The notes below the pieces were generated by a model, which saw only the letters and a list, made by a program, of their open reading frames with translations, did not search any database and was not told the DNA's origin. Shown piece after piece: positions 11,456-63,067 of a stretch of DNA of 64,000 nucleotides (positions are counted from its first letter, which is position 1; each line of letters starts with the position of its first letter). Both the position numbers and the translations under genes were made by a program. The stretch is from Limnomonas spitsbergensis (lineage: Eukaryota > Chlorophyta > Chlorophyceae > Chlamydomonadales), in assembly GCA_037349105.1 (NCBI GenBank), contig JAYJMM010000106.1, forward strand, positions 2,356,001-2,420,000, given 5' to 3'.

Positions 11456-14400
11456 ATGTCTTTTCAGGACCTCGGCCTTGACCCCCGCCTCCTGCGAGCA
11501 ATCGGCAAACTCGGGCTCATAAAACCCACCGCGGTCCAGCTGGCCTGCGTCCCCAAAACTCTCGAGGGAAAGGACATCATTGCCAGGGCGCGAACCGGCA
11601 GCGGCAAGACGCTCGCTTACCTGCTCCCGGCCCTGCACCGCGTGTTGACGGCCACTGACGACGGCTGCAGCGGCAGCTTCAACGCCATCATTCTCGTGCC
11701 CACTCGTGAGCTATGCGAGCAGGTGCGAGAGGGGATACTGATGCACAGGCGTGCTCTGTGCGATATATGTATTGTCATGCCGTCGAGCCAGGGGCCATGG
11801 CGTGCATGGCCTTTGCATGGCAGCTTCAAAGCTGTCATCCTTGTGCCCATTCGCAAGCTGTGCGTGCAGGTGCAAGCGAAAGACATGATGGACAGGCATG
11901 CGACCTGCATGTTGTTGTTGCCTGCCTTCGTTGACTGTATGACCCTTCATGTCAAAAACGGCTTGGCATTGGTGCCGGGGCGGCCTCGGCTTGCATGGCA
12001 TATGCCTGGGTGTCGCGCGCTTTGCAGGAGGGAGGGCGAGGCTGCTGATGGACAGACGTGCGCCCTAAATCACGACATTGTCAGCCATCCATTCAGTGGC
12101 TTTGCAGTTGAATGTTTTGGTAATTGGATCCCTCCCAATCCCGCTGCATGGAGTGCATGCGCGATGCTTTCCTCTCGGTTCAAAGGGTATAGCATTATCC
12201 GGCATAGATTCGGTTCTGGGAGCCTGCCCTTGACTCGCTCACAAAAAATCGTTCGATAGCATCCTTTGGGGTGCGAGCTGTACCCTATAGCGACTAAAAT
12301 TTGCACTGGTTGTAATCAGTGCTGTGCCGATTACGGGCCTTACGGTGGCTGAATTTCGTGGCTGAGTTTCAGTTACCGTACTTTCAAGGCAAATTCAGCT
12401 ACTTTTACCAGTAGAGGAATGTAATTGCTTACACAACTCTTGAATTAATGGCGCAATTGCACAGCACTGGTTGTAATGCCCCTCGTGCCAGGGGCCGAAG
12501 CATGCGTGGCAAGTCAGCATGCATGGCAATACAGCAGGCAGGGATCTTTATAGTGGCATTTGGAACCAATTGACGGTTACCATTAGTAGGGACTTCTTGG
12601 TGGTGAACTCAATGCAGGCGCGGGATTTTTCCCGATCCTGATTGACTTCAACGTCGCTTTGCGGTGTCATTCGGCGGAACCTTGGCTAACGGCTGGTGGC
12701 CTAAGCAGAAGGTTTGTTGGATCTGGAACCGCGGTTGGACCATATGTAGCTGAACTGCAGCTGAAACACCCTCGCGTAAATAGAGGCCAGGCCCACTAAA
12801 ATCAGAGACCCGGGTCATGAAGTGGCCCACTGCTGTCTTCGTCTGCAAAACCGTGAGAGCTTACGCCACACTCGGAGAATAAAATAATGATTCTCATACT
12901 ATCAGGAGGACAAGAAAGGCCTGCTTGCGTTCGGATTGTAGTTTTGATTTGGGTGAGGTTCAGGATAAAGGTAGAAGCACATCACATAACATTGAGCGGC
13001 TGATTCATATCGTTCCGCGCTGAGTCACACTTTTCACGTGTGATTAGGTTAAGCTGGAGGCTGCTGCAGTGGCGGAGCACTGTGGCTCTGATGTGAAGGT
13101 GAGGACTGAGGGGGAGATTGAAGCAGGGGGGGGGGGGGGGGGAGATAGAGAAGGGGGGGCGGTGGAGAGAGAGGGGGGGGGGAGGAGTAGAAAGGGGAGG
13201 GGTAGAGGGAGGGATTGGTAGAAGGGGGAGGGGAGAGGAAGAGGGAAGAAGAGGGGGGGAGGGGGAGAGGAGAAGAGAGAGGAGAGGAGGAGGAAAGGGG
13301 GGAGGGATAGAGGTGTGTGTATGGGGGGGGGGGGGGGGGGATTATAGGGTGGGTGGGGAAGGGGGAGAGGGGGAAGGGGCAGTGAGTGGGAGAGGGTGAG
13401 AGGTGTGCGCAATTTTGGAATCTGAAATATTGTAAACATGAGATCACGAAGAGGCCATGGGGGGGGAGGTGAGAGGTTAAAAGAGAATCGAGAGGGGGGG
13501 TAGAGTAGATGTTTATGGGGTGGGAGGGGCCGAGTAGGAGGAGACCGTTATATTGCACCAGGTAGCCTGCCCTTAATATGAATTCCCCATATTGTGTACC
13601 GCGGGTCACTGCCCGGCTGGGGTATAACAGTTGGCCACCTCAATTCACGTCTCAAGGCGCACCCCTTCCACCATGTCCCAAGGCACACCCCTTCCTCCTC
13701 AGTCGTGAATGTTATCTGATGGGTGCGCTGCAGGTCACTGCCCTGCTGGGGGAGAACTCTCTGGAGCTGAAGCGGGCGGTGGCTGTGGCTGGCCATGTCG
13801 TGGTCTCCACACCAGGTGAGGGGTCTGAGGGAGTCTGAGGCAGCCTGAGCAAGTCTGAAGAATTATAAGGCAGCCTGAAGAATTAAAAGGCAGCCTGAGG
13901 AAGTCTGAAAAATTGTAAGGCAGCCTGGGGAGTCTTGATGCGGTCTGGAGTACGCTGAGGAGGTCCAGGGGGAGGAGGGCTCATCTGCGGGATGTCATGT
14001 CATGGTTGGTGGCTTTAGGGTTCTGAGGAGGTCCAGGGGGAGGATGCGCCCACACCGTTCTGACGCCATAATGTGGTTATCTGAAGGGCTTATTTGAGGC
14101 AGAATGGATGATGGGGTGAGGAACATTTGGGGGCTGAGGAAGGTTTTGAGGACTGGGGAGGTTTGGGGTCTGGGGAAGGTTTGGGGACTTTGGAGGGTTG
14201 GGGTCTGGGGAGGTTTGGGGTCTGGGGAGGTTTGGGGTCTGGGGAGGTTTGGGGTCTGGGGAAGGTTTGGGGTCTGGGGAGGTTTGGGGTCTGGGAAGGT
14301 TTGGGGTCTGGGGAGGTTTGGGGTCTGGGGAGGTTTGGGGTCTGGGAAGGTTTGGGGTCTGGGGAAGGTTTGGGGACTTTGGAGGGTTGAGGACTGGGGA

Positions 14401-17400
14401 GGTTTGGGGTCTGGGAAGGTTTGGGGTCTGGGGAGGTTTGGGGTCCGGGGAGGTTTGGGGTCTGGGGAAGGGTTTGGGGACTTTGGAGGGTTGAGGACTG
14501 GGGAGGTTTGGGGTCTGGGGAGGTTTGGGGTCTGGGGAGGTTTGGGGACTGGGGAGGTTTGGGGTCTGGGGAAGGTTTGGGGTCTGGGGAGGTTTGGGGA
14601 CTTTGGAGGGTTGGGGACTGGGGAGGTTTGGGGTCTGGGGAAGGGTTTGGGGACTTTGGAGGGTTGAGGACTGGGGAGGTTTGGGGTCCGGGGAGGTTTG
14701 GGGTCTGGGGAAGGGTTTGGGGACTTAGGAGGGTTGAGGACTGGGGAGGTTCGGGGTCTGGGCAAGGTTTGGGGACTTTGGAGGGTTGGGGACTGGGGAG
14801 GTTTGGGGTCTGGGGAAGGTTTGGGGTCTGAGGGTGTGATGGAGATGATGGTGATGGTATGTGGGGTGTGAGAGAGGGGATACAAGTGGCAAAGGGAATT
14901 AGTGGGGGGGGGGTCTTGGGGTCAGCAGGGGCAGAGGGGGGGGGAGGAGGCCAAAAGTGTTTCCCTGAGGTGGGAGATTGTCTCTGGCTTAAGGCCACGG
15001 GGAAGTTGCCTGAAGGCAGCAGATTTATCTTTGTGAGGGTTTATGTCAATAGTAAACTGTTGTTTGCATGTGCGTGTTGTCCCGATGCAAGGAACTGACT
15101 TCCTTTAAAATGCCTCAAGGCTTAGGGTTTAGGGTTAAGGGCAGACTTTGCCCAACCAAAGGCTGTAGCCCTAGCAGAGGTGCTTGTTGTACCCTACCTC
15201 TCCCCCCCACCCCCCCCTCAGTTGTAGGCCCAAGCAGGTGCGAAAAGGCAGGGGAGTCACCTTCAAATAGTGTGAAATTAAAGAGTGAACCATTGCATGC
15301 ATGTGTGTGTTCTCTTGATGCAGGGATTCGGCTGCCTTTGAAATGCCTTAGGCAGCCTCCAGCAGACTTTGCCCGACCAAAGGCAGTAGCCCGAGCAGAC
15401 GTACTTGTTGTACCATACCTCTCCCCCTCGGCTGTAGGCCTGAACACTTGCAAAAATGCAGGGGATTCACCTTCAAATAGTGTGACATTAAAGAGTGAAT
15501 CGTTGCATACATGTGTGTGTGTTCTCCTGATGCAGGGACGCTAGCCGCTGCCATGCAAGAGGCGCTGATTCCCCTTTAAATAGTGTGACATTAAAGAGTG
15601 GGCCATTACATGCACTTGCGTGTGTTCCCTGATGCAGGGAAGCTAGCCGCTGCCATGCGAGAGGCACTGATCCCCCTGGCTGCGTTTCAGGTGATCAGGG
15701 AAGGGGGGAGGGAGGCAGGCACGGGGGGCGAGGAGGGGGGGGGAGGGGGCGGAGGGCAGGGGTTTGAGGAGGGGGGGGGGAGGGGGTTGGAGGTTGAGGG
15801 GGGAGGGGGGCAGGCACAGGGGGGCAGAGAGATTTGGGGGGGGGGAGGAGGGAAGGGAGGGGGGCAGGCAAGGGGGGCAGGGAGGGGGGAGAGAGAGGGG
15901 TCGGGTTGGGGGGGGAGGGGGGGAGGGTTGAGAGAGGGGGCTTGTGGAGGAGCTGATTCAACCGGATACAATGCTACTGTGCAGGGAGTAGCCCTGCTGC
16001 TTGGGCCACCAGCCGTAGGCTGGTCCAAGTTTGGTCCATTGGGTCTTTGACGGCTGCGGGGCTGCCTGCCAAAGGTGGATTCGTAGCCGAAAAACGAAGC
16101 ACAGACCCTGCTGGCGTTTTGCAGGGGAGTGGGCAGGGGGGGAGAGGGGTGGGGAGGGGGAGGGGATGTCAGTCTTCTTCTTTCGGCTGCAAGTTCAACT
16201 TTGGCAGGCCGCCCAAAGGCCTCCAAGGGCCCAAGTAGGACCAGACCTGGACTGGCCCGCAATTTGTGGCCAAAGCAGCAAGGCTGGCCACGAATGGGGT
16301 CTCCGGCCAGCGGCCTGAGTGTAGCTGACATGTAGCTGTGTCACAGGGGGACAACTGGGGGATATGTGGCTCACGAAGAGAGGATGGGCAGGGATGCAAG
16401 AGCGTTGTTTGCAGTTCTGAAGACATGGTAAGCTTGAGAGTTATCGCAGATCTGAGGGGCGTGGCAGATCTGAGGGGCATGGCAGATCTGAGAGGCATGG
16501 CAGATCTGAGAGGCATGGTAGATCATACGCCCTGAAGCCAGCTCTGCCCGCAGAGATGTTTCTCTCGCTCGCCCTCGCGCGCCTGCACGCCGGCCATCCT
16601 AGGACCGCACCAACGCACCCCGCCCGCCCGCCAGCCTTTGCCCACCCCCATGTGCCCGCCCGACGCCCTGCGCCTGCCCTGCTCTCCCCATGTGCCTGCC
16701 AGCCTTTGCCCGCCCCCCATGCGCCTGCCCGCCGCCCTGCGCCCGCCCGCCCGCACGCACGCTTCCACATACCTCCCAGCCTGTTTTTCCCCCTCCTGCA
16801 CCCTGCCGCCCACAGTCGCGGCTGCCCGCCCCCTATGTGCCTGCCCGCCCCCCATGTGCCTGCCCGCACGCTTCCACATACCTCCCAGCCTGCTTTTCCC
16901 CTCCTGCACCCTGCTGCCCGCAGTCGCGGCTGCAGATGCTGATCCTGGATGAAGCCGACTTGCTGCTTTCCTACGGCTATGAGGAAGACCTGCAGCTCAT
17001 AGCGCCCCAGGTAGGCCCGAGTGGGCCCAAGTAGGCCCACTCCGAAAGATACATTACCGTAGTATGAGTCCGATTTCGTTTTATTGATCGTTTTTCAAGA
17101 AAACGAACCGTTGATTTCGATTAAAATGTACCATGGGACAAAAACGAACCATAAAAACGAATATTTAGCCCCAAACCCTAAAAAATCGCCACACAAAGAG
17201 TAGCTTCGTTCATGTCGCAATCATGCTCCTTTCGCATTGAAATGCTGTTGTTATGAGCAAAAGGCAGTTCACTTTCGCTGAATCAATTGCTAGAGCAAAG
17301 GCACGGGCTGTTCTGGCACCGGCAGCACCTCATCAGACATCGCCGGCTCCCGCTGATCCCGCTTGCGTCTCGGTTATTAGAGACTGGGGCCCGGAAGATG

Positions 17401-20400: not shown

Positions 20401-23400
20401 TTTAGGGTAAAGTACCGCTGCCCAGCTCGGGGTGACAGAACCCTGACGCCCTGGATATCCTCCCCGCACTAGTCATGTGTTTTGAATTCGTTGTTCAAGC
20501 ATCGTTCATACTTTCTCACTCACAACTTGGAGAACAGGCTGCTTGCAACACCAGTGACCTGCATCTGCCGTATGATAAATAAGCCCCCTCCGAGGGGCTT
20601 GTATTTCAAGCTCCCTAACTACGAGCCCCCTACTTGTGAGCCCCCTATTACTCTGCCCCTTAATTTTCAGTCACTGATTCTGAGCCCCTTGATTGTGTGC
20701 CCCTCATGATAACCCTCTCCCCCCGCCCCCACTCCACCTGCCTCTCATCTCCATTTCTCCCCTCTTAATTACCCTCTCCCCCCGCCCCCACTCCACCTGC
20801 CTCTCATCTCCATTTCTCCCCTCTTAATTATCCTCTCCCCCCGCCCCCACTCCACCTGCCTCTCATCTCCATTTCTCCCCTCTTAATTATCCTCTCCCCC
20901 CGCCCCCACTCCACCTGCCTCTCATCTCCATTTCTCCCCTCTTAATTACCCTCTCCCCCCGCCCCCACTCCACCTGCCTCTCATCTCCATTTCTCCCCTC
21001 TTAATTACCCTCTCCCCCCACCCCCACTCCACCTGCCTCTCATCTCCATTTCTCCCCTCTTAATTATCCTCTCCCCCCGCCCCCACTCCACCTGCCTCTC
21101 ATCTCCATTTCTCCCCTCTTAATTATCCTCTCCCCCCCGCCCCCACTCCACCTGCCTCTCATTTCCATTTCTCCCCTCTTAATTATCCTCTCCCCCCGCC
21201 CCCACTCCACCTGCCTCTCATCTCCATTTCTCCCCTCTTAATTATCCTCTCCCCCCCGCCCCCACTCCACCTGCCTCTCATCTCCATTTCTCCCCTCTTA
21301 ATTACCCTCTCCCCCCGCCCCCACACCACCTGCCTCTCATCTCCATTTCTCCCCTCTTAATTACCCTCTCCCCCCGCCCCCACTCCACCTGCCTCTCATC
21401 TCCATTTCTCCCCTCTTAATTACCCTCTCCCCCCGCCCCCACTCCACCTGCCTCTCGTCTCCATTTCTCCCCTCTTAATTACCCTCTCCCCCCGACCCCA
21501 CTCCACCTGCCTCTCATCTCCATTTCTCCCCTCTTAATTACCCTCTCCCCCCCGCCCCCACTCCACCTGCCTCTCATCTCCATTTCTCCCCTCTTAATTA
21601 CCCTCTCCCCCCGCCCCCACTCCACCTGCCTCTCATCTCCATTTCTCCCCTCTTAATTATCCTCTCCCCCCGCCCCCACTCCACCTGCCTCTCATCTCCA
21701 TTTCTCCCCTCTTAATTACCCTCTCCCCCCGCCCCCACTCCACCTGCCTCTCATCTCCATTTCTCCCCTCTTAATTACCCTCCCCCCCCGCCCCCACTCC
21801 ACCTGCCTCTCATCTCCATTTCTCCCCTCTTAATTACCCTCTCCCCCCGCCCCCACTCCACCTGCCTCTCATCTCCATTTCTCCCCTCTTAATTACCCTC
21901 TCCCCCCGCCCCCACTCCACCTGCCTCTCATCTCCATTTCTCCCCTCTTAATTATCCTCTCCCCCCGCCCCCACTCCACCTGCCTCTCATCTCCATTTCT
22001 CCCCTCTTAATTACCCTCTCCCCCCGCCCCCACTCCACCTGCCTCTCATCTCCATTTCTCCCTCTTAATTACCCTCTCCCCCCGCCCCCACTCCACCTGC
22101 TTCTCATCTCCATTTCTCCCCTCTTAATTACCCTCTCCCCCCGCCCCCACTCCACCTGCCTCTCATCTCCATTTCTCCCCTCTTAATTACCAGCCCATAA
22201 CTTACATGGCCTTTTGATTATCAGCCCTCAAATTACAAGCCCATTAATTACAACCCCTTCTCCTCCCCCCCCCCTCCTCTTGTAGATCCCTCGCTCCTGC
22301 CAGTGCATGCTGATGAGCGCCACGGTGTCCGAAGAGATTGAGCGCCTTAACAAGCTCATTCTCCACAACCCGGTCACCCTCAACCTCCTGGACGTGCAGG
22401 GGGGCACCGCCGGCCTGGGCGCGGGATCAGGTGGGGGTCAGGCAGGGGGGCACTGCCGGCCTGGGCGCGGGATCAGGTGGGGGAGGCAAGGGTGCACGGC
22501 AGGCCTGGGCGCAGGATCAAGTGGGGGAGGCAGGGGTGCACCGCAAGCCTGGGCGCGGGATCAGGTGGGGGTCAGGCAGGGGGGCACCGCCAGCCTGGGC
22601 GCGGGATCACGTGGGGGAGGCAGGGGTGCACAGCAGGCCTGGGCGCGGGATCAGGTGGGGGAGGCAGGGGTGCACCGCAGGCCTGGGCGCGGGATCAGGT
22701 GGGGGAGGCAAGGGTGCACGGCAGGCCTGGGCGCAGGATCAGGTGGGGGAGGCTGGGGTGCACCGCAAGCCTGGACGCGGGATCAGGTGGGGGTCAGGCA
22801 GGGGTGCACCGCAGGCCTGGGCGCGGGATCTGGTGGGGGAGGCAGGGGTGCACCGCAAGCCTGGACGCGGGGTCAGGTGGGGGTCAGGCAGGGGGGCACC
22901 GCCAGCCTGGGCGCGGGATCAGGTAGGGGTCAGGCAGGGGGGCACCGCAGGCCTGGACGCGGGATCAGTTGGGGGGGGCAGGGGCACCGCAGGCCTGGGC
23001 GCAGGATCAGGTGGGGGAGGCAGGGGGGCACCGCCGGCCTGGGCGCGGGATCAGGTGGGTGTCAGGCAGGGGGGCACCGCCAGCCTGGGCGCGGGATCAG
23101 GTGGGGGAGGCAGGGGTGCACCGCAGGCCTGGGCGCGGGATCTGGTGGGGGAGGCAGGGTTGCACCGCAAGCCTGGGCGCGGGATCAGGTGGGGGAGGCA
23201 GGGGTGCACCGCAGGCCTGGGCGCGGGATCAGGTGGGGGAGGCAGGGGGGCGCTGCAGGCCTGGACGCGGGATCAGGTGGGGGAGGCAGGGGGGCACCGC
23301 AGGCCTGGGCGCGGGATCAGGTGGGGGTCAGGCAGGGGGGCACCGCCGCCTGGGCGCGGGATCAGGTGGGGGAGGCAAGGGTGCACGGCAGGCCTGGGCG

Positions 23401-26400
23401 CAGGATCAGGTGGGGGAGGCAGGGGTGCACCGCAAGCCTGGACGCGGGATCAGGTGGGGGTCAGGCAGGGGGGCACCGCCAGCCTGGGCGCGGGATCCGG
23501 TGGGGGGGGCAGGGGTGCACCGCAGGCCTGGGCGCGGGATCTGGTGGGGGAGGCAGGGGTGCACCGCAAGCCTGGACGCGGGGTCAGGTGGGGGTCAGGC
23601 AGGGGGGCACCGCAGGCCTGGGCGTGGGATCAGGTGGGGGTCAGGCAGGGGGGCACCGCAGGCCTGGACGCGGGATCAGTTGGGGGGGGCAGGGGCACCG
23701 CAGGCCTGGGCGCGGGATCAGGTGGGGGAGGCAGGGGGGCACCGCCGGCCTGGGCGCGGGATCAGGTGGGTGTCAGGCAGGGGGGCACCGCCGGCCTGGG
23801 CGCGGGATCAGGTGGGGGAGGCAGGGGTGCACCGCAGGCCTGGGTGCGGGATCTGGTGGGGGAGGCAGGGTTGCACGGCAAGCCTGGGCGCGGGATCAGG
23901 TGGGGGAGGCAGGGGTGCACCGCAGGCCTGGGCGCGGGATCAGGTGGGGGTCAGGCAGGGGGGCACCGCAGGCCTGGGCGCGGGATCAGGTGGGGGAGGC
24001 AGGGGGGCACCGCAGGCCTGGGCGCGGGATCAGGTGGGGGAGGCAGGGGAGGCAGGGGGGCACCGCCGCCCTAGGGCGTGCAGGGGGGCACCACCGGCCT
24101 GGACCTTCAGGGGGACCTGACGGCCTGGGCGCGGGATCAGGTGGGGGAGGCATAAGTGCGGAGTAGTATCCAGGGTCAGGTGTGGGAGACCATCGGATCC
24201 AGAAGTATCTTCAAGTACCCAGGAGTATTTAGGTGAGGGGGGAAACAATGTCTGGAAGGATCTTGCAAGTAATTGTGTCCAGGGGCAGGTGAGGGATGCA
24301 GCTGTATCACAAAATATCACAAAATATCACAAAATATCACAAAATATAGCGAGTGTCTGGTGTCATGGATGTGGTTGTCTCCTGAGTGAGGGAGACAACA
24401 ACATCCATGAAGTATTTAGTGAATATCCGGGATCAGGTGAGGGATGGATTAAAAACAATCCAGTGAATATCCGGGATCAGGTGAGGGATGGATTAAAAAC
24501 ATTTAGTAAATATCTGGGATCAGGTGAGGGATGGATTAAAAACAATCTAGTAAATATCTGGGATCAGGTGAAAGATGAATTAAAAAACAATCTACCTATT
24601 ATCTACGGTTTATTACATCGTCTGCTTTGCTTATGTCGCCATTCTTCTTCTCTACTTCTTCGACTGTTCCTGCAGCATCCACGACTTCACGCACATATTC
24701 GATCCTTGTAGTAGCACTACTCTTTCAACTCCCTCCCCACGTGATGTACAATACATCCCCTGTTGCACGCATATGCTGTACGCATACGTTGTACACATAT
24801 GCTGTACGCATCGCATCCTTCTTCTTCTTTCGCTGCTGTTACGTTGTTCACTGTGGCACTGCGTCAAACATACTTTTTGTCCGACTCCTTCAATGCCGTA
24901 TCATGGTACTCTAGATTGGCTTCACCTCCCCCCATCATACATTCATACGTAGAGCAGTTCATGGGTGATGGATATTTCCACAATAAAACTTAGTGAGGTC
25001 ACCAATTATCATCGGAAATGATTTTTTGTCGATACCGGAATTGATTTTTTGTCGATACCGGAATTGATTTTTTGTCGATACCGGTATATTTGTCCCAAGG
25101 GCAATTTTAAACATACCTAATCTAGGGAAGGCAGTAAGACTCCACAGCTGCTCTTTCCTTATTGCTCACATTTTATCTGCTGCTCCTCAGGCACTGCTTC
25201 CGAAATAGAGCACTTCTCCTTTGATTGCGCTCCGGAAGACAAGCTGCTGGTCACCATGGCCCTCCTTAAGCTCGGCCTGGTGCGCAAGAAGACACTCATC
25301 TTCGTGAATACAGTCGATAGGGTGAGTGGAGATGGGGTGAGAGGGTGGGCCTGGGTCGCAAGAAGGCGCTTATCGTCGTGAATACAGTTGATAGGGTGAG
25401 TGGGGAAGGATGTGAGGGGGGTGGGCCTGTGTCGCAAGAAGGCGCTCATCTTCGTGAATACGGTTGATAGGGTAAGTGGGAATGGGGTGAGAGGGTGGGC
25501 CTGGTGCGCAAGAAGGCGCTCATCTTCGTGAATACGGTTGATAGGGTAAGTGGGAATGGGGTGAGAGGGTGGGCCTGGTGCGCAAGAAGGCGCTCATCTT
25601 CGTGAATACGGTTGATAGGGCGAGAGAGGAAGGATGTGAGGTAGGTGGGCGCCCGTTGGGGGGGGAGAGGGAAAGGGAGTCAGTGGGGTAGGGTAGAGAT
25701 GGGAAGGGAGGGGGGAAGAGAGAGGGGGGGGGGCAAAAATGCCCTCATCAACATCAACACTTCCGGCTGGACTACATGCCCTGTCTTCATGGCGGGAGTG
25801 TTGGTGGAGATGTGCTGATGTGTTGTTGGGGGGGGAGATGGCTGTGGCTGGGGGGGGGGATGTACCACCTGGCATTACTGCAGATTTGATTTGCCTTCCC
25901 TCAGGTATGAAAACACGATTCTTTTTAACGCTGTCCTCGGGGCAGACTTTCGACCAAAACTCTTATTTTCTGACTGGAATCTGGCGTGGACAGTCGATAA
26001 TTTGTAATTTCGTGGATCCCTCAACCCCAAACAACGTTAATGATGAGGGAAGGCAAATCAAATATACAGTATTTGCTAACTATCCGACGCTTGTCCCCTG
26101 CCGACGCTTGTCTCTGGCTGACCCTTGTCCCCTGCCGACGCTTGTCTCTGGCTGACCCTTGTCCCCTGCCGGCGCTTGTCTCTGGCTGACACTTGTCCCC
26201 TGCCGACGCTTGTCCCCTGCCGACACTTGTCCTTTGCCGACAGGGCTACCAGCTTCGCCTGTTTCTGGAGAGCTTCGGGGTCCGCAGCGCCCTCCTCAAT
26301 GCAGAGCTGCCTCTCAACAGCCGCAGCCACATCTTGCAGACCTTCAACAAGGGGCTGTTTGACTACCTCATAGCCACGGGTGGGTATATTCCCTTTGAGG

Positions 26401-29400
26401 CGTTTGCCTCTCCAGCTTTTTTTGACTTCCTGTGCTTCATACAAATGTTGACTACCTCACAGCCACTGGCGCGTGTTTCAAAGGGTTTGTTTTGGGGGGT
26501 ATTTCAAGGTGTTTGCTTGCTACAGTTGTTGATTCCCTGTCTGCTTGGTCCCAAATCTTGCTATGTTGCGGCTCGTGCCATCATCCCCCCACCACCCCAC
26601 CCCCCCACCCAACCACCCACACCCTAACGCTAACATCCAATCCCTGCAGATGACGTTCATACCTCATCGCATGACAGCCCCTCCACCCAACCACCCACCC
26701 CTTAACCCTAACCCAACACCCCTCCAACCAAACACCCACACCCTAGCCCCAACATCCAATCCCCGCAGATGACGTTCATGCCTCATCCCATGACGGCCCC
26801 TCCACTAGCAAAGCAAGCGGGACAGCGGCAGTGAAGCGTGGACGCGACGGGCGGCCACTTTTGGGCAAGAGTGGTGGAGGTGAGACCCTTCTTATGTTTG
26901 TTTCTAAAAGGTTTAGGGTTTGTAACTAGGGTTCAGGGGTCACAGTTAGGGTTCAGGAATCATATTTAGGGTTTAGGTTTTATAAGTAGGGTTTGCGGTT
27001 CATAATTAGGGTGAAGGGTTCACAATTAGTGATTCAGGAGGGGCAGCAGTGTAGTTTGGCCGCGACAGGTGGCCACTTTGGGGCAAGGGCAGCGGTGGTG
27101 TTGAGGAAACAGGCAAATGGGTCTTCAGGGGAAGGGTACAAGGAGGGGTGGCGGTGAGGGTGGCTACTTCTGGGGAGATTCACAGCAGGTAGGGACTTCT
27201 GAAAGTTGACTGTGTACCTACCCATTGGTCCTTGACTCCGTGCAGCGGAGGTGAGAGGGCTCTCCATGGGACCCTTCTTTTCATTTGTTTTATTTTCTAC
27301 AAAATTGGGACAGCCTGGCTAAAAAATGGCCTTGGTGGGTGCCTACCTCTGGGGAAATGCGGCGGCGGTGACAGAGCTCCCCCGGGCACCCACCTTCTCA
27401 TTTGTTTTATTCAAAGTTGGGACAGCCTGGCCCGCTCAAAAATGGCTTCCGTGCAGATGATTCGTTTTGGGGATTTAGGGCTTATGACTTCCGGCTTCTA
27501 AACCTTGAACCCTAAATCGTTACCCGTGTTTTGCTGCAGGTACAGCGGGTGGCTGGGAGACCAACATGGCGACAGACCCATCTCATCCTCCCTCTTACCC
27601 TAAACCCTAAACCCTTAACCCTAAACCATAAGCCATAATTGTTCATAGCAACCCTGGTGTCGTGCTTGCAGGGAAGGCCGGGGGCAGGAAGGCGCCATGA
27701 CAGCAGGCTCACCTCATCCCCCTCCCTCCGTTGATTGTTTACAACTGCCCCCATGTCTTGCCCGCAGGAAAGGCAGGGGACAGGAAAGCTATCAAGGCAA
27801 TAGACTCCCCTCGCCCCCCCCCTCTCACCCCTGTTTTTATTTACGATAGCTCATGTTTCGTGCGCACAGGAAAGGCTGGGGGCAGGAAGACCAAACCGCC
27901 CCCCCCCCCTCCTATTTCAATCCACAGCTGTCCTTATGTTTCGCGCGCAGGCAAGGCCGGGGGCGGGAAAACTGTGAAGCCGGGCGGCGCCAAGGATGAG
28001 GAGTTTGGCGTGACGCGCGGCATTGACTTCAAAGGCGTCCGCACCATCATCAACTACGACCTACCCTCGACAGTACAGGGCTACGTGCACCGAGTGGGGA
28101 GGACAGGTGGGGAGGGGCAGGGCTGCCAGTTATCAACCACTAAATGGTAACGGCGCAGATGTGGCTTCGGCCCAGGCTGTGCTGTTTCCTTCCTGAACTC
28201 CCAAGCCTCCCACGGCGCGTAGCTTTCCGTGTTCCTCTCAGCCGCTGATGAAGCGACCATTGGCATGTGTCCTATAGCAATCAGTACAGGGCTATGAGTA
28301 CAGAGTGGGGAGGGCAGGTGAGAGGCCAGGCCCATGATCCATGGAGCCATGGATTATAAACCCTAGGATCTTTACCATAACCTTGCATGGCAGGCCGTAC
28401 CGTCGTGGCTCCTAATCCTTTAGTTATGGACCTTTCACCCCAAACCCCTCAACCCTCAACCAGTACCGCCCTAAACCCCAGATTTGCTGTTTATTGCCAC
28501 CCTGGCAGGCCGTACCGTCGTGGCTCCTAATCCTTTAGTTATGGACCTTTCACCCCAAACCCCTCAACCCTCAACCAGTACCACCCTACTACCCAGTACT
28601 GCTGTTTATTGCCACTTAACCGCCATCCAAACGCCAACCAGTGCCCTAATACCCAGTATTGCTGTTTATTGCCACTCAACCGCCATCCAAACGCCAGCCC
28701 CCTGATCCTTTAGCTTTTTACCTTTTACCCCCCAAACTGAACTCTCAGCCAGGAACACCTTGAACCCCAGCATGGCCCTTTATTGCCACCCTGGCAGGCC
28801 CTGTCGGCCAGCCCCCTAATCCTTAAGTGTTGACCTTGCACCCTTAACTCCTGAACCCTTGACCATTGACACCCTGAACCCCAGCATGACTTTTTACTGC
28901 TTCTCATGACAGGCCGTGCTGGCGAGTCAGGCGTCGCCATCACACTTCTTGGCCCTAAGGACAAGGCGTACCGCGAGCTACTGCTGGAGGCGCTGGTGGA
29001 ACCTGCTGCCGCCCAGGCAGTACAGGTGGTACGCATCGGCGGTACGGCGGACGACGACGAAGAGGAAGGAGAGGCCAAGGAGGCTGGGGAGAAGGTCGGT
29101 GCCCCGGCTGGGAGGATATCTGCCACTGCTTAGGGTTAAGGGTGTTGCAGCTTCATTGTATGCCTTCTCTGTACCTACTCTGCACCATCCCTGCACCTTC
29201 CCTGCACCATCCCTGCAACTACCATGCAACTACCATGCACGCATCCTGTGGCTACCATTCTCCTGCCACCCAGCACCTTCCCTGTACCTTCCATGCACGT
29301 TTTCTGCATCTTCCACGAACCTTCCAATCTTCCTTGCACCTACCCTGCACTTTCCCTGTGCCTGTCCCGCACCTTCCTTGCACCTACCCTGCACTTTCCC

Positions 29401-32400
29401 TGTGCCTGTCCCGCACCTTCCTTGCACTTACCCTGCACTTTCCCTGTGCCTGTCCCGCACCTTCCTTGCACCTACCCTGCACTTTCCCTGTGCCTGTCCC
29501 GCACCTTCCTTGCACCTACCCTGCACTTTCCCTGTGCCTGTCCCGCACCTTCCTTGCACTTACCCTGCACTTTCCCTGTGCCTGTCACGCACCTTCCTTG
29601 CACCTACCCTGCACTTTCCCTGTGCCTGTCCCGCACCTTCCTTGCACTTACCCTGCACTTTCCCTGTGCCTGTCCCGCACCTTCCTTGCACTTACCCTGC
29701 ACTTTCCCTGTGCCTGTCCCGCACCTTCCTTGCACCTACCCTGCACTTTCCCTGTGCCTGTCCCGCACCTTCCTTGCACTTACCCTGCACTTTCCCTGTG
29801 CCTGTCCCGCACCTTCCTTGCACCTACCCTGCACTTTCCCTGTGCCTGTCCCGCACCTTCCTTGCACTTACCCTGCACTTTCCCTGTGCCTGTCCCGCAC
29901 CTTCCTTGCACTTACCCTGCACTTTCCCTGTGCCTGTCACGCACCTTCCTTGCACTTACCCTGCACTTTCCCTGTGCCTGTCACGCACCTTCCTTGCACC
30001 TACCCTGCACTTTCCCTGTGCCTGTCCCGCACCTTCCTTGCACTTACCCTGCACTTTCCCTGTGCCTGTCACGCACCTTCCTTGCACTTACCCTGCACTT
30101 TCCCTGTGCCTGTCACGCACCTTCCTTGCACTTACCCTGCACTTTCCCTGTGCCTGTCCCGCACCTTCCTTGCACCTAACCTGCGCTTTCCCTGTGCCTG
30201 TCACGCACCTTCCTTGCACTTACCCTGCACTTTCCCTGTGCCTGTCACGCACCTTCCTTGCACCTACCCTGCACTTTCCCTGTGCCTGTCCCGCACCTTC
30301 CTTGCACTTACCCTGCACTTTCCCTGTGCCTGTCACGCACCTTCCTTGCACTTACCCTGCACTTTCCCTGTGCCTGTCACGCACCTTCCTTGCACTTACC
30401 CTGCACTTTCCCTGTGCCTGTCCCGCACCTTCCTTGCACTTACCCTGCGCTTTCCCTGTGCCTGTCCCGCACCTTCCTTGCACTTACCCTGCACTTTCCC
30501 TGTGCCTGTCACGCACCTTCCTTGCACTTACCCTGCACTTTCCCTGTGCCTGTCACGCACCTTCCTTGCACTTACCCTGCACTTTCCCTGTGCCTGTCAC
30601 GCACCTTCCTTGCACTTACCCTGCACTTTCCCTGTGCCTGTCACGCACCTTCCTTGCACCTAACCTGCGCTTTCCCTGTGCCTGTCCCGCACCTTCCTTG
30701 CACTTACCCTGCACTTTCCCTGTGCCTGTCACGCACCTTCCTTGCACTTACCCTGCACTTTCCCTGTGCCTGTCACGCACCTTCCTTGCACTTACCCTGC
30801 ACTTTCCCTGTGCCTGTCCCGCACCTTCCTTGCACCTAACCTGCGCTTTCCCTGTGCCTGTCACGCACCTTCCTTGCACTTACCCTGCACTTTCCCTGTG
30901 CCTGTCACGCACCTTCCTTGCACTTACCCTGCACTTTCCCTGTGCCTGTCACGCACCTTCCTTGCACTTACCCTGCACTTTCCCTGTGCCTGTCACGCAC
31001 CTTCCTTGCACTTACCCTGCACTTTCCCTGTGCCTGTCACGCACCTTCCTTGCACCTAACCTGCGCTTTCCCTGTGCCTGTCCCGCACCTTCCTTGCACT
31101 TACCCTGCACTTTCCCTGTGCCTGTCACGCACCTTCCTTGCACTTACCCTGCACTTTCCCTGTGCCTGTCACGCACCTTCCTTGCACTTACCCTGCACTT
31201 TCCCTGTGCCTGTCCCGCACCTTCCTTGCACTTACCCTGCACTTTCCCTGTGCCTGTCCCGCACCTTCCTTGCACTTACCCTGCACTTTCCCTGTGCCTG
31301 TCCCGCACCTTCCTTGCACTTACCCTGCACTTTCCCTGTGCCTGTCCCGCACCTTCCTTGCACTTACCCTGCACTTTCCCTGTGCCTGTCCCGCACCTTC
31401 CTTGCACTTACCCTGCACTTTCCCTGTGCCTGTCCCGCACCTACCATGCACCTACCCTGCACTTTCCCTGTGCCTGTCCCGCACCTTCCTTGCACTTACC
31501 CTGCACTTTCCCTGTGCCTGTCCCGCACCTTCCTTGCACTTACCCTGCACTTTCCCTGTGCCTGTCCCGCACCTTCCTTGCACTTACCCTGCACTTTCCC
31601 TGTGCCTGTCCCGCACCTTCCTTGCACCTACCCTGCACTTTCCCTGTGCCTGTCCCGCACCTTCCTTGCACTTACCCTGCACTTTCCCTGTGCCTGTCCC
31701 GCACCTTCCTTGCACTTACCCTGCACTTTCCCTGTGCCTGTCACGCACCTTCCTTGCACTTACCCTGCACTTTCCCTGTGCCTGTCCCGCACCTTCCTTG
31801 CACTTACCCTGCACTTTCCCTGTGCCTGTCCCGCACCTTCCTTGCACTTACCCTGCACTTTCCCTGTGCCTGTCCCGCACCTTCCTTGCACTTACCCTGC
31901 ACTTTCCCTGTGCCTGTCCCGCACCTACCATGCACCTACCCTGCACTTTCCCTGTGCCTGTCACGCACCTTCCTTGCACCTAACCTGCGCTTTCCCTGTG
32001 CCTGTCCCGCACCTACCATGCACCTACCATTCTCTTGGCGCCCTGCGCTCTGCCTCGCAGGGACCCCTCTGTCCCTATGGTCGGCTTCCTAAACCCTAAA
32101 ATCCTTAACACTAAACCCTGCCTCGCAGGGACCCCTACGTCCCTATGGTCGGCTTCCCAAGGCGCAGGTGGAGGCGCTCCGGTATCGCGGGGAAGATATC
32201 GCGCGCAGGTATGTCAGTTGGAAGTTCTGGAATGAAACGTAGTTTTGAAAGAGGGTCACACTTACGGACTGCCTCGGGGAAAGCGTGGCGCTCTTTTCTT
32301 GAAATATGCGTATGTTTACTAATGCCAATTATGGTGCAGAAAACTGAAATACTTTGGTTGAGGCGTTGCGCGCTTGCGTGAAATCTTGAGGGGCCAAATC

Positions 32401-35400
32401 TAGGCTTTGGGAAGCTGAGAAATATGTATTGTTTTAACAAGGGGCATGTCACTTAAGGGGTCGGACGAGTCCCCCCAAACAAGGGGTTTCGGCCGGGACG
32501 GAGCCTTTCCACCCAAAAAGTCCGACAGGAAGAAAACGATATTTCCTTCCGTACTAAACAGCTTAAGTCCTGGAAGCCAGTAAAACCAGGTAGAACTATT
32601 CGCGGGGAAAGACCCCATCCCAAGGGTCGATTGCGGTTGTCGGGGGACTTGTCTGACCCCATAAGTGACATGCCCTTTGTTTGAACCCTACATTTTAAAG
32701 AAAATGGCATTGCTTGGGATAATTTGTTATGATGAATTGTTACTTTTTAGGAGAAGGGTATCCATGAAAGCAAATTCTAGTTGTTTTAATGTTTTGTTGC
32801 GGCAGAGCAGAGGAAAACGGACACGCGTGCTCTCCAAAGCTTGGGGCGTCCGATCAGGTTTTGAGGGTTGACGGAGCGGAAAAGGAAGTTTCAAAGGTGC
32901 ATGCTGTTCATTTGTGTTACCCCTTATGGCAGAATGTTTTGGAGAAAAAATAGTTGCGCTAAACCGCCAAAGCGGCTCCCACACCCCTATGAAAATAAAA
33001 TGGTTTATTCTAATTTATGGTAAGCTCCTCATAGGGGAATTTGATTCGTTTAATCGTGCTCTCACTTAATTGATATTATGTTAGCGGAAAGGCAATGTGA
33101 ACATACCGGTACAAAATCCCTGATGTGGTCAGCCGATGCCCGTCTACCTCACAAACACAGTGCTGGATGAGGCATCATTTAAAGCTCTGCAGATGGGTCC
33201 CGCCGTCATGCAGACATCCCCTGAGGAATTGCCAGGGCTGCAAATGAACACCTGCACCATTGCATCATTCCCCACGATGCCAAAGATGTGCGCGCGGGGT
33301 CCCCGCCAGTTTATTTTTGTGGCATTCGGAATGAATTTTCGTTACCAGAAGTACCGGTAGTGGGTTCTTGCGGAGTTTTTGGTGAAGAGCCCGCCACGGG
33401 CGGCAAATTTCCCCTATCCTGATTGATTTCGGCGTTCTTCGTTACCGCGCAACAAAACCCCAGATTCGCCAAATCAATTGTTTACGACTCGTAACCAGTA
33501 CTGTACTGTCATTCTCATTTGGTGTCATTTAACCAGTAACCACTAAAAATAACCAGTAACCAGTAACCAGTGTCACATAACCAGTAACCAGTAACCAGTG
33601 TCACATAACCAGTAACCAGTAACCAGTGTCACATAACCAGTAACCAGTGTCACATAACCAGTAACCAGTGTCACATAACCAGTAACCAGTAACCAGTGTC
33701 ACATAACCAGTAACCAGTAACCAGTGTCACATAACCAGTAACCAGTGTCACATAACCAGTAACCAGTGTCACATAACCAGTAACCAGTGTCACATAACCA
33801 GTAACCAGTAACCAGTGTCACATAACCAGTAACCAGTGTCACATAACCAGTAACCAGTAACCAGTGTCACATAACCAGTAACCAGTAACCAGTGTCACAT
33901 AACCAGTAACCAGTGTCACATAACCAGTAACCAGTAACCAGTGTCACATAACCAGTAACCACTAAAAATAAAACTGGTCCCCGCAATGTAACCCTCCTTC
34001 AATCCTCCTTCGTCCATCGGTATATCGCAGTATTACCCGCAACGTCATCAAGGATGCTCGTGCAAAGGAGCTCAAAGCAGAGCTGCTCAACTCAGAGGTG
34101 GGTTTAGGGTTAGGGTGTAGCTGCTCAAGGGCCACTTCAACACCTCAAGGAGTTTTTTTCACCTTGATCGTAGAGTATTGATCCATTCGATGTGTGTTTG
34201 TTTGTGCAGCGTCTTAAAGGCTACTTCTAAGCCTCAAGCTTAGATACCGTCCCTTGAATATACAGTATATTGATTGTTTTTTTGTTTGTTTTTGCTTGTG
34301 CAGCGTCTCAAGGGATACTTTGAGGAGCACGCAGCTGAGAGGTGCGTACTGTTCAGTTCTCGCTTGACTGAAATGTTTTGCACCCACCCTCCAGCCTTCT
34401 TTGATGGGACACAGCAATTGCGTGCTGTTCAGCTCTCGCTGGACTGTAATGTACCTCTCCCACCCACCAGCCTTCTTCAGAGGGGCCGGGCGATTGCGCG
34501 AGAGATGCATGTGAATTGAAGTTTTTACAGTCCAGTGGGGCATCGAATTTGATGCATAGGACAGGTGCCCGAAAATCAGTTCGGGCACAAAATAGGCCAG
34601 GGCAGCGAGCGGAAACAAAAACGGGTGAACCCCAGAGCAAGCAACCAACACACAAGAACATCTGTCAGCCAGCTGCATGTCCAGCGCATGCTGCAGCTGC
34701 ATACCGTAGCCAGCGCATCTGCATGCCCGCTTGTAGCTGTGTTCACAAATCGATCCTCGCATTAAAACCCGAGGATGGAGACAGTCAACGAATCAAGTTG
34801 CGGCATGACTGCGTGCACGCAGGACGCTGCTCCGCCACGACAGGCCCCTCCACAGGACGCAACAGGCAGTACACCTCAAACACGTACCGGCGTACCTCAA
34901 GGACCCCTCGCTCATTGGCTCTGGTGGGTTTAGGGTTTTAGGCCCAGAAAGCAAACCCTAAGCATCCTGGTGGGTCAGGGTGCAGGTAGTCAACCCTAAG
35001 CATCCTGGTGGGTCAGGGTGCAGGTAGTCAACCCTAACCATCCTGGTGGGTCAGGGTGCAGGTAGTCAACCCTAAGCATCCTGGTGGGTCAGGGTGCAGG
35101 TAGTCAACCCTAAGCATCCTGGTGGGTCAGGGTGCAGGTAGTCAACCCTAACCATCCTGGTGGGTCAGGGTGCAGGAAGTCCACCCTAAGCATCCTGGTG
35201 GGTCAGGGTGCAGATAGTCAACCCTAAGCATCCTGGTGGGTCAGGGTGCAGGTAGTCAACCCTAAGCATCCTGGTGGGTCAGGGTGCAGGTAGTCAACCC
35301 TAAGCATCCTGATGGGTCAGGGTGCTGGTAGTCAACCCTAAGCATCCTGGTGGGTCAGGGTGCAGGTAGTCAACCCTAAGCATCCTGGTGGGTCAGGGTG

Positions 35401-48764: not shown

Positions 48765-49052
48765 GCCAGGAAGCCCAGTGAGGCGGGTTTAGGGTTGTTT
48801 TACTGCTAGGAAGCCCAGCGAGGCGGGTTAAGGGTTGTTTTACTGCCAGGAAACCCAGTGAGACGGGTTCAGGGTTAAGGATTGTTTTACTGCCAGGAAG
48901 CCCAGTGAGGCGGGTTTAGGGTTAAGGGTTATTTTACTGCCAGGGAGCTCAGTGAGACGGGTTTAGGGTTAAGGGTTGTTTTACTGCGGAGAAGCCCAGT
49001 GAGGCGGGTTTAGGGTTGTTTACTGCCAGGAAGCCCAGTGAGGCGGGTAAGA
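48765..49052 (+). repeat. Array of the microexon-like junction
   Basis: Seven units of TTTTACTGCCAGGAAGCCCA / GTGAGGCGGGTTTAGGGTTA. The last keeps GCGG + GTAAGATG as in copy A. Copy A has a single unit (40045-40085). Confidence 0.88.
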
Positions 49053-50720: not shown

Positions 50721-50864
50721 TGCCTGTATGTAGAAAGACCTAAAGATAAAGCTTATATCATCTGGACTCGATCTGGACCCTGAGCTCTCAATTCTGAACC
50801 CTCCACGACAGCTTTTATCATCTGCACCCTGAGCTCACAACTCTGTACCCTCCACCTGCATCAG

Positions 50865-54575: not shown

Positions 54576-54999
54576 CTGTAAGACAAAGGGAGGAAGACTT
54601 GATAGTCCATACATGTGGAGGGATAAGCACACCGCTAACGGTATCCAGATTTTCCCCGTCATACTCCGTTCCTCACCACTATTTCTTCTTCATTCGTTAC
54701 AAGGCGATTGCTCTCGTCAGCGCCTGCTTGCCCACTTCGTCCACTCATCCGCAGAACGTAAAGAGACGAAATTGTTCGGTGAAATAGGTCATTCGATACG
54801 ACAGTTCGTGTAGTGGCACAGTCAGGAGAATCGCTCGACTTGGACTAATTCTAGCCGGCCCTGTAGAGGTGGTTAGCAAATTAAGCATGTGGTTCCGGAG
54901 GCAACCAGGTTGACGTGGCGAAAGAAGCCGACGTGGCCAGTGGCGTGTATAAGATTGGGCGAGTGACTCCTTTCCTTGGTAGCATTTCATAAGAAAAAC

Positions 55000-57900: not shown

Positions 57901-60900
57901 GGCCGTGGAGTGCTTGTTGGTCGTGTGCCTTTCCTATTCCAGCTCGCCTTTACTCAGCTGTCGACGAGGGCCCCTTGCGCACCCGGGCTGTTTTTCTATG
58001 TCCGCGTCTCAGATTTCTAGGGTTGGGCGGCCGGTCTCACACCTTGTTAAGTCACAGCAAAAGAATAATAAGTTTATGAAGGAAACACGAAACGGGCCCC
58101 GCCTCACCCCGCCCCTTCCCGCCTTAAGCGGGCCCCGCCCCTCAAGGCCCTGCCGCTGCCTTTGCCGATACGCAGGAAACCTCGATCGACAGCATGGAGG
58201 AGAGCTTTGCCCTCGGATATGGAGACGGCAGCTCGGCAGCTGCAGTCGCGGACGCCGTGCCCTCAGTGCCCTGGGTGGGCGCGGCCGCTGCGGCGTCCCT
58301 TGGCTCCGCCACCGCCGGCCTGAACCGCTCGGCCAACTTGGCTGCGTCGCGGCTGGCGCAGGCGACCAGCCATGCGGCCTCGCTGGCGCTCTCGAAGTTC
58401 AGCTCTGCCGCGCAGTCCATGCAGGTAGGACGATGGGATGTCTCCCACTCTCCCCATAGGTGGCTTGATCCACACTGAAATTGGCACCGGATGCGTTGGC
58501 GGTATTTTCCCCAAGTTGTTTTTTTGTGTGTATATGCAACATATGATACTGCATTCCTTTTGGGGAGGGAGAATTACACTTCTCCTTTCGTTTCCAGTCT
58601 TTCTGTCTACCTTCTGGGTATCAGATTGCTTCACTCCCAACTACCGGTACACAGTTGGGCTCCCACGCGGCAGACCCTTTTTGAGTAGGGCACGGTGGTG
58701 TATTTTTATTGACAGGAGGTATCCGAGGCTGGCAAGCTGGAAGACCATGAACTCCTAGCTGCTAACAACTGTTTTTCCAGGTTTTACATTCAACGCTTAG
58801 TTCAAAAATCGAAACGTGGATGCCTTATCTCTCCGCCCGCGTCTCTCATCTTCTTGACTCAACGTGACACGATTCCTCGTTTCTCAGTTTCATAAACCGC
58901 ATTCTTTTCGTATTAAAAGCTTGCGGTGGCCCCTTTTCCCCTGGTCCCTCTTCTTCGACTGGCGCCCCTACGGATCCTGAAACCCCTTAAACGAGTTATA
59001 TTATAACGCTGTCCCCTTACCGAACTCACCTGTATTCCTGCGCAGAGCACGCGATGGATCGCGTTTGACGACGAGGACTCCACGTCGCGCGTCATCGCCG
59101 TCAGCGCAGGCGCCGAGGCCACTCGGGCGGCGCGCAGCCGCTCCTCGTCGTGTTCCGTGCAGTTGGAGGGCAGCCACAGCGCGAGGATAAACAGGATGCT
59201 GCAGGAGGAGGCGCGCGGGCTGGTGCTGCAGCTGCTGCCGCTGGTGGTAGAGGCCACAGAGCGGGGCATGCAGGTCACCTTAACGGTGAGTTTGACTGGC
59301 GATGCGTGGAATGCCGTTTTCATTCACCTGAAGGGAGGGTGCACGTACTGGTACTGCAGCTGCTGCCGCTGGTGGTGGAGGCCTCAAGAGCGGGGCATGC
59401 AGGTCACCTTAACGGTGAGTTTGACTGGCGAAGTGGGGAATGCCGTTTGCATTCACCTGAAGGGTGGGCGCACGTACTGGTACTGATGCTGCTGCTGATG
59501 GTGGTCGCGGCGACAGAACGGGGCATGCAAGTTACATGGACGGTGAGTGTGGGGCCCGCACAGTGTTCCTTTTTCGGCTACAATTTACCATCGGAAGCCC
59601 GCCCTGCCGCCTCCAAAAGCCCGATTGAAACCAAGCCAGGACCGGCCTACGAGACTGGTGCCCAAGACAGTTTGGTTGGCCACAACTGGGAGCTCTGGCC
59701 AGAGGCCAGAGTTTAGCTGACATGTAGCTGAGTCACGAAAAAATGTCACTGGGCCCGCAGGGCATTCAGTCCACGTTGGTGGAGTGGAGATTGCAAGTTG
59801 CGCTGACAGTGAGAATGCAGGGCGCAGGCTGCATCTGATTTTGCTGCTACTGCTGCTGGTTGTTGAGGCGACGGACCTGGGCTTGCAGTACGATTGAAAT
59901 ATGAGACTATGGTTGAAATATGCTCTCCTGCCTTGCCGTGTTTTTTCGCAGGGCGCCGGTGCGAATGGCTGCCTAGCCGGTGTTAAATATGCTCTGGCTG
60001 CCTAGCCGGCCTGAAATATGAGGCTATGATTCAGATATGCCTCTGTTGGTTTTCCACAGGGCGCCGGTGCGAGTGGCTGCCTAGCCGGTGTGAGCACGCT
60101 GCTTTGCGCCCGAAGAGGTCTAGGCTGCTCCGCCAACATCAATGCCGTCGCGTTCGACCCGCCCGCCTGTATCGGCGAGGAGGCCGACAGCACCTGGTGC
60201 AACGAGGGGGGCTGCAACCTGCAGGTGAATTGTGGTGGGCTGCAACCTGCAGGTGACAAGTGGTGGGCTGCAACCTGCAGGTGATTAGTGGTGGGCCGCA
60301 ACCTGCAGGTGATTAGTGGTGGGCTGCAACCTGCAGGTGATTAGTGGTGGGCTGCAACCTGCAGGTGATTAGTGGTAGGCTGCAACCTGCAGGTGATTAG
60401 TGTTGGGCTGCAACCTGCAGGTGATTAGTGGTGGGCTGCAACCTGCAGGTGATTAGTGGTAGGCTGCAACCTGCAGGTGATTAGTGTTGGTCTGCAACCT
60501 GCAGGTGATTAGTGGTGGGCTGCAACCTGCAGGTGATTAGTGGTAGGCTGCAACCTGCAGGTGATTAGTGGTGGGCTGCAACCTGCAGGTGATTAGTGGT
60601 GGGCTGCAACCTGCAGGTGATTAGTGGTAGGCTGCAACCTGCAGGTGATTAGTGGTAGGCTGCAACCTGCAGGTGATTAGTGGTGGGCTGCAACCTGCAG
60701 GTGATTAGTGTTGGGCTGCAACCTGCAGGTGATTAGTGGTGGGCTGCAACCTGCAGGTGATTAGTGGTGGGCTGCAACCTGCAGGTGATTAGTGTTGGGC
60801 TGCAACCTGCAGGTGATTAGTGGTAGGCTGCAACCTGCAGGTGATTAGTGGTGGGCTGCAACCTGCAGGTGATTAGTGTTGGGCTGCAACCTGCAGGTGA

Positions 60901-63067: not shown

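What the first reader, a model, noticed from the sequence alone, without database searches (positions are those of the whole stretch)
11456..63067. Splice junctions are systematically amplified into the adjacent introns
At most exon borders of the helicase and lipase-like genes, and at one border of the dehydrogenase gene, the exon edge plus its splice site recurs in the flanking intron. Donor-side copies always lie downstream of the real exon and acceptor-side copies always upstream. Examples: helicase exons 1, 7, 9, 10, 16 (donor) and 3, 4, 5, 9, 10, 11, 12, 14, 16 (acceptor); lipase-like exon 4 and 5 donors, exon 5 and 6 acceptors. Copy number runs from one to about 40. Seen in sequence: the copies. 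Known: tandem duplication across an AGGT site is a proposed route of intron gain. Inferred: an ongoing process here enlarges introns and plants decoy splice sites.
Basis: partly seen in the sequence, partly recalled or inferred. Interest (0 to 1): 0.88.

Follow-up and report, generated by a model that had tools for sequence, protein, structure and literature searches.

The report
Splice-edge duplications that lengthen algal introns
In this green alga short tandem duplications often copy the edge of an exon together with its splice site into the neighbouring intron, which lengthens introns and leaves look-alike splice sites; the pattern occurs in many genes, but chance duplication plus selection to keep the protein intact can explain most of it.

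Summary
In 17 modelled genes (169 introns) I found 121 local duplication families: 60 cross an exon border, 13 copy mainly the exon end, 48 are intronic; shuffled introns give 11. Copies lie on the intron side at 58 of 59 borders, which keeping the protein would force anyway.

Is it targeting? Random placement of such units in today's introns gives 30% border-touching families, against 60% observed. If introns were 229-290 bp when hit, as in related algae and in family-free introns here, it gives 50-54%, and little excess remains. No mark of AGGT-type intron gain was seen, nearly all families are private to their locus, and decoy splice sites decay about neutrally.

Best reading: a general tandem-duplication load, filtered by selection on exons, lengthens introns and plants decoys. 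A true border hot spot remains possible (about 0.25). The lipase-like gene could not be confirmed.

The parts
11456..41058 (+). DDX56/DBP9-type DEAD-box RNA helicase gene, 17 exons: 11456-11722, 13048-13098, 13734-13815, 15638-15690, 16924-17010, 22286-22430, 25191-25321, 26244-26379, 26769-26879, 27951-28106, 28913-29094, 32129-32208, 34031-34097, 34304-34341, 34823-34923, 39234-39448, 40954-41058
   Evidence: Spliced alignment to a profile of green-algal orthologs; best listed relative Chlamydomonas eustigma, 65% identity
11672..11930 (+). Exon 1 end + donor, one diverged copy 147 bp downstream
   Evidence: copy keeps GT
13594..13757 (+). Exon 3 acceptor and weak upstream copy (offset 129)
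   Evidence: score 21, below the cut-off of 24 used for counts
15464..15677 (+). Intron end + acceptor + start of exon 4, 103-bp unit, two copies
   Evidence: copy keeps AG
16571..16937 (+). Acceptor of exon 5 with upstream copy (offset 116)
22396..24049 (+). Exon 6 end + donor amplified as a 44-bp unit, about 37 copies
   Evidence: strong matches only at this locus, otherwise weak 66-71% matches on two contigs
25274..25650 (+). Exon 7 end (48 bp) + donor (26 bp), 74-bp unit, 4.7 copies
   Evidence: only this locus matched in the genome
26587..26805 (+). Acceptor of exon 9 with upstream copy (offset 119, 85% identity)
26825..27105 (+). Exon 9 end copied 218 bp downstream (edge-only: intron side not recognisably similar)
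27644..27979 (+). Acceptor of exon 10 with upstream copies
28071..28320 (+). Exon 10 end copied 211 bp downstream (edge-only)
28388..28926 (+). Acceptor of exon 11 with upstream copies
32050..32160 (+). Acceptor of exon 12 with copy 68 bp upstream (93% identity)
34115..34498 (+). Exon 14: acceptor copy upstream (offset 89) and donor copy downstream (offset 81, GT lost)
37600..39963 (+). Exon 16: repeats on both sides, acceptor copies upstream and donor copies (55-bp steps) downstream
29145..32059 (+). Purely intronic array, 44-bp unit x about 61, block starting 50 bp after the exon 11 donor
34945..36929 (+). Purely intronic array, 38-bp unit x about 51, block starting 21 bp after the exon 15 donor
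2726..2886 (-). 6-phosphogluconate dehydrogenase gene (11 exons, from about 5009 down to beyond base 1): acceptor of exon 6 (at 2726) and its copy at 2789-2886, the only such border of 20
59220..59548 (+).
   Evidence: negative searches

Best explanation
The genome carries a heavy, general load of local tandem duplications (border-crossing units mostly 45-140 bp, some later amplified into arrays). A duplication that starts in an exon and ends in the intron, or the reverse, is tolerated if splicing keeps using the outermost sites, that is the donor nearest the upstream exon and the acceptor nearest the downstream exon; the other copy then becomes intron. Duplications inside exons change the protein and are mostly lost. 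Because the units are a sizeable fraction of an ordinary intron of this group (medians 200-340 bp), a large share of the surviving duplications must span a splice junction, with the copies on the intron side. Each one lengthens the intron and leaves a decoy splice site that then drifts. Shown here: the copies, their direction, their presence in most genes sampled, their privacy to the locus, near-neutral decay of decoys, absence of intron-gain marks. Inferred: use of the outermost sites (no transcripts), random breakpoints, short introns at the time of the hits.
For: 14 of 17 genes have junction or edge families; the other three (CCT1, CCT3, CCT8) have short introns, medians 144-307 bp. Direction 58 of 59. 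A forward simulation with introns capped at 229-290 bp gives 50-54% border-touching families, replicates 46-58%, against 60% observed; related Chlamydomonadales have median introns of 198-343 bp (passages of PMC8226300) and family-free introns here 289 bp. Density of families with >=84% identity is alike outside the modelled genes, 0.19 against 0.21 per kb. 104 of 108 families match no unrelated modelled gene. Decoys stay intact at about the neutral rate. Donor and acceptor sides are similar, 23 and 33 families, P 0.23.
Against: With today's intron lengths, reduced only by the detected expansions, border families are twice the expectation: 60 of 96 against 29.5, simulation 30% against 60%. The excess holds for low-copy families of at least 84% identity, 11 of 16 against 5.5, P 0.003, which need not have hit short introns. 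With introns capped at 289 bp the geometric null still leaves 65 of 108 against 45.6, P 1.5e-5; it vanishes only when lengths are cut to about 0.3 (median 124 bp). The capped simulations end with median introns of 237-298 bp against 479 real, so other growth must have followed. Taking the shorter intron of each paralog pair left 28 of 38 against 21.4, P 0.009 (older caller). Families of all ages are denser in the genes than outside, 0.64 against 0.43 per kb.
Confidence: 0.6

Rival explanations
1. Exon borders are true hot spots: breaks or template switching occur more often near splice junctions, for example through co-transcriptional breakage or nucleosome-linker exposure, so junctions are amplified beyond what selection and geometry give.
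For: Two-fold excess against current intron lengths, also in young low-copy families. Purely intronic families lie near borders: KS P 1.9e-5 for the 33 families with at least 200 bp of other intron. Outer block edges are densest within about 60 bp inside the exon and, at donors, 30 bp inside the intron.
Against: Most of the excess disappears in simulation if introns were 229-290 bp when hit. The simulation without a hot spot gives as many blocks ending 0-30 bp inside the intron (11% simulated, 10% observed). No significant donor/acceptor polarity. In the older-caller simulation the families of >=80% and >=84% identity exceeded the null only slightly (0.50 and 0.54 against 0.34-0.47).
Confidence: 0.25
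2. Retention or visibility bias: duplications arise evenly, but those touching exons last longer or stay recognisable longer, because deletions cannot run into the exon and one copy of the exon part is under selection.
For: The exon side of the copies is a little more alike than the intron side (0.85 against 0.81, P 0.002). Edge-only copies exist whose intron part is not recognisable (13 families).
Against: A simulation with stronger exon constraint and older events did not raise the border share much (32% against 30%). The excess is as large in young families. Deletions were not simulated.
Confidence: 0.1
3. Intron gain by tandem duplication of an AGGT-containing exon stretch, the copies being marks of intron birth.
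For: Tandem duplications at AG|GT sites exist here; a boundary-crossing duplication made a new intron in potato (PMC4974935, abstract and Results section).
Against: No in-register match of exon end with intron end stands out in 169 introns. Exon lengths of paralogs agree except at first or last modelled exons, 37 introns compared. The copies include existing intron sequence.
Confidence: 0.03
4. The repeated splice sites are kept because they help splicing (splice-site arrays as recruiting platforms) or serve alternative splicing.
For: Intact decoys are slightly more frequent than neutral (20 of 24 and 24 of 33; P 0.11 and 0.25). Of the intact copies 21 of 24 acceptors and 9 of 20 donors score at least as well as the real site.
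Against: Neither excess is significant. No clear preference for units divisible by three (remainders 0/1/2: 22/15/20). Presence differs between paralogs at 18 of 27 crossed borders.
Confidence: 0.02

Closest known systems
Boundary-crossing tandem genomic duplication in the potato RdRp gene (Ma, Lan and Niu 2016, PMC4974935; abstract and Results section read)
   Same: A tandem duplication that crosses an intron-exon boundary and carries the parental acceptor signals
   Different: One case, and the outcome was a new intron; here there are dozens in 17 genes, and the models make the extra copy part of the old intron
[quoted passage not shown] Hellsten et al. 2011; seen only as described in passages of PMC3443670 and in PMC4974935)
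   Same: Tandem duplication and AG|GT sites
   Different: The duplicated stretch there is exonic and makes an intron; its register signature is not seen here
Donor duplication on the way to stwintrons in Lipomyces (PMC7138796, abstract only)
   Same: Duplication of a functional donor element of an existing intron
   Different: There it is proposed to lead to nested introns spliced in two steps; nested splicing could not be tested here
Introners (PMC9860276, search listing with start of abstract only)
   Same: Repeated sequence at splice sites
   Different: Introners are dispersed elements that create introns; nearly all these repeats are private to one locus

Membership tests
Boundary-crossing tandem genomic duplication | Head-to-tail copies that contain exon edge, splice site and intron edge | tested here: met
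   60 of 121 families in 17 genes; shuffled control 8 in 5 replicates
Boundary-crossing tandem genomic duplication | A new intron and exon spliced between the copies (potato outcome) | not testable with these tools
   No transcripts; the protein models need no extra exon
AGGT intron gain by tandem duplication | Upstream exon end repeated at the intron 3' end and intron 5' start repeated at the downstream exon start, in register | tested here: not met
   Mean 11.93 of 46 positions against 11.90 in the control, maximum 20 (control 23), 169 introns
AGGT intron gain by tandem duplication | Intron present at a position where a relative has none | tested here: not met
   Four paralog pairs, 37 comparable introns, exon lengths agree except at first or last modelled exons; no comparison with other species was made
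Introner | Same element in many genes | tested here: not met
   4 of 108 families match an unrelated modelled gene; donor-7 array matched once genome-wide, donor-6 array only weakly elsewhere
Minisatellite (for the arrays) | Head-to-tail units of about 10-100 bp, many copies | tested here: met
   44-, 38-, 59- and 74-bp arrays in the window

The most novel reading that the evidence does not exclude
Exon-intron borders in this alga are mutational hot spots for tandem duplication, so that splice junctions are repeatedly copied into introns, about twice as often as random intron positions. This would be a border-directed ratchet for intron growth and decoy splice sites, tied perhaps to transcription, splicing or chromatin at exon edges.
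Probability: 0.25. Interest if true: 0.85.

Novelty: new variant of a known kind. Interest (0 to 1): 0.55.

Why it matters
How introns become long is usually credited to transposon insertion (general knowledge). Here a second route is visible in gene after gene: junction-spanning tandem duplications that selection can keep only on the intron side. It gives a natural set of dozens of intact duplicated splice sites, many scoring as well as the real ones, so that the choice between near-identical sites can be read from RNA. The same kind of event is the raw material from which new introns and nested introns have been proposed, so its frequency here bears on the open question of where introns come from.

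Tried and rejected
First caller rejected: plain self-BLAST (used) reported no family offset below 87 bp and missed borders such as acceptors 12 and 14; the chunked caller replaced it. Results quoted come from the older caller.

First null rejected: placing blocks of aligned length gave only 12.8-16.7 border families expected of 58 and overstated the excess; unit-length nulls and forward simulations replaced it.

Position coverage is misleading: 13 of 32 helicase borders against 55% of intron positions, and 48 of 338 borders against 28% of intron positions in all 17 genes, look like depletion, because a few long arrays fill the introns. I report it as a result that does not favour enrichment.

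Rows dropped: L046 (CCT1-like region that aligned only in part); low-complexity matches; families with score below 24 or unit above 600 bp where stated.

Led nowhere: homologs for the lipase-like gene; Rfam on the window, 0 matches; frame preference of units; telomere-like motif as a marker of the duplications (17 of 31 clusters in or near a family, 45% expected).

Full report
WHAT IS THERE. The window is part of a 260-Mb assembly in 124 contigs. The helicase protein is closest to Chlamydomonas eustigma (65%) and other Chlamydomonadales, so the source is probably a green alga of that order or near it; the species was not identified. I wrote a spliced protein-to-DNA aligner and used a profile of 14 algal orthologs to model the helicase as a DDX56/DBP9 ortholog with 17 exons, 11456-41058. 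The 6PGDH gene on the minus strand has 11 exons. The lipase-like label could not be confirmed.

THE COPIES. I add donors 6 (44-bp unit, about 37 copies) and 14. At score 24 or more, 13 of 32 helicase borders are crossed. In 6PGDH it is 1 of 20.

BEYOND THE WINDOW. A family search for chaperonins gave 16 further regions (fetched); 15 could be modelled, one (L046) aligned only in part and was dropped. With the two window genes this makes 17 genes and 169 introns. The chunked caller finds 121 families: 60 crossing a border, 13 copying mainly the exon end, 48 intronic. The same caller on dinucleotide-shuffled introns finds 55 in five replicates, 8 of them junction-crossing; 32 of the 55 are in the helicase. 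At score 24 or more 25 donors and 34 acceptors of 169 each are crossed, and 14 of 17 genes have at least one junction or edge family. The three genes without have introns with medians of 144-307 bp.

DIRECTION. At 58 of 59 crossed borders the copies lie on the intron side only. This is not an independent finding: a copy on the other side would stand in the coding sequence.

IS THE BORDER SPECIAL? Counted by positions it is not: 48 of 338 borders are covered by a copy, against 28% of intron positions (older caller), because long arrays fill some introns. Counted by families the picture differs. A tandem unit of length u in an intron of length A crosses a border in about 2(u-16)/(A+u-16) of placements. 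With introns reduced by the detected expansions, 60 of 96 families (score 30 or more) touch a border against 29.5 expected. The excess persists at identity of at least 90% (12 of 23 against 6.3, P 0.0014), for low-copy families (36 of 54 against 19.5) and with one member of each paralog pair (48 of 85 against 25.9). A forward simulation of random tolerated duplications, mutated and run through the same caller, gives 30% against 60%.

Two points weaken this. First, simulations with introns capped at 290 or 229 bp give 50-54%, replicates 46-58%, and at 150 bp 69%; 65 of 108 differs from 50-54% with P 0.02-0.12. Median introns of related algae are 198-343 bp (passages of PMC8226300) and family-free introns here 289 bp, so such lengths are plausible when the introns were hit. 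But the capped simulations end with medians of 237-298 bp against 479 real, so later growth by other means would be needed; at least one helicase intron does hold a dispersed repeat. Second, families of at least 84% identity are about as dense outside the modelled genes (0.19 per kb over 78.4 kb) as in introns (0.21 per kb), although families of all ages are denser in the genes (0.64 against 0.43, older caller). On the other side, the geometric null with introns capped at 289 bp still leaves 65 of 108 against 45.6, only a cut of intron lengths to about 0.3 removes the excess, and taking the shorter intron of each paralog pair leaves 28 of 38 against 21.4 (older caller). I therefore leave about one chance in four for a true hot spot.

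WHAT HAPPENS TO THE COPIES. The decoy site aligned with the real one is still GT in 20 of 24 donors and AG in 24 of 33 acceptors, where neutral decay predicts 16.8 and 21.6; 9 and 21 of the intact ones score at least as well as the real site. So decoys are neither purged nor clearly kept. Units show no clear preference for multiples of three. The exon side of the copies is slightly more alike than the intron side, 0.85 against 0.81. Introns with a family are 724 bp long at the median, those without 289 bp; part of this difference is that long introns offer more room.

PARALOG PAIRS. Four chaperonin genes exist as pairs with exons 78-92% identical. Exon lengths agree except at first or last modelled exons, so no intron was gained or lost among 37 comparable introns, while at score 24 or more 18 crossed borders are private to one member and 9 are crossed in both. 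Whether the 9 are inherited or hit twice was not tested. Many paired introns share little or no alignable sequence.

WHAT IT IS NOT. The repeats do not look mobile: 4 of 108 families match an unrelated modelled gene, the donor-7 array matched only its own locus in the genome and the donor-6 array has only weak matches elsewhere. They are not marks of AGGT intron gain.

KNOWN RELATIVES. A tandem duplication across an intron-exon boundary made a new intron in potato (PMC4974935, abstract and Results section); donor duplication has been proposed as a step to stwintrons in Lipomyces (PMC7138796, abstract). In nine literature searches no listed title or abstract start describes border duplication as a common mode of intron growth; several lists were capped, most papers were not opened, and the library lacks most subscription journals.

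LIMITS. No transcripts were available; borders rest on protein conservation and GT/AG. The references for 16 of the 17 final gene models were recalled, not fetched (the helicase profile came). Fifteen of 17 genes come from one family of conserved proteins. P values printed as 0 are below about 1e-5, the simulation limit. Deletion and transposon insertion were not simulated.

Noticed in passing
window, 24 places, e.g. 34929-34937, 34103-34111, 27603-27625, 48788-49017: Telomere-like TTTAGGGTT: 24 matches against 0.58 expected. In the introns of the 17 genes TTAGGGTT occurs 87 times in 23 introns, permuted motifs 3.1 times on average; exons of these genes have none, nor do 40 kb to the right of the window. 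Possibly marks of break repair; no clear link to the duplications (17 of 31 clusters in or near a family, 45% expected).
   Followed up: partly
window 18605-19785 (helicase intron 5): Dispersed repeat, probably a transposable element: 2213 first-look candidates genome-wide, of which 40 were scored, mostly 83-91% identical.
   Followed up: partly
G000 contigs C39/C99, C36/C119, C84/C114, C82/C97, and Ras-family matches on C113/C120, C105/C116, C41/C124, C19/C93: Several genes occur as pairs on different contigs (chaperonin exons 78-92% identical); on C84/C114 a chaperonin and a Ras-family gene are both paired. Suggests an old whole-genome or large segmental duplication, or two diverged genomes. 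The Ras pairs are read from the match table only.
   Followed up: partly
L049-L052 (G000:C106:2420001-2460000): The first 30 kb to the right of the window lie mostly in long repeat blocks (79-89% of each 10 kb), the fourth 10 kb less so (24%).
   Followed up: no
L046 (G000:C102:974001-982000, minus strand): A CCT1-like region that aligns only in part and poorly; probably a pseudogene.
   Followed up: no
window 12001-32000: Very strong strand asymmetry in several 2-kb stretches, GC skew from -0.58 to +0.52, where G-rich or C-rich arrays lie.
   Followed up: no
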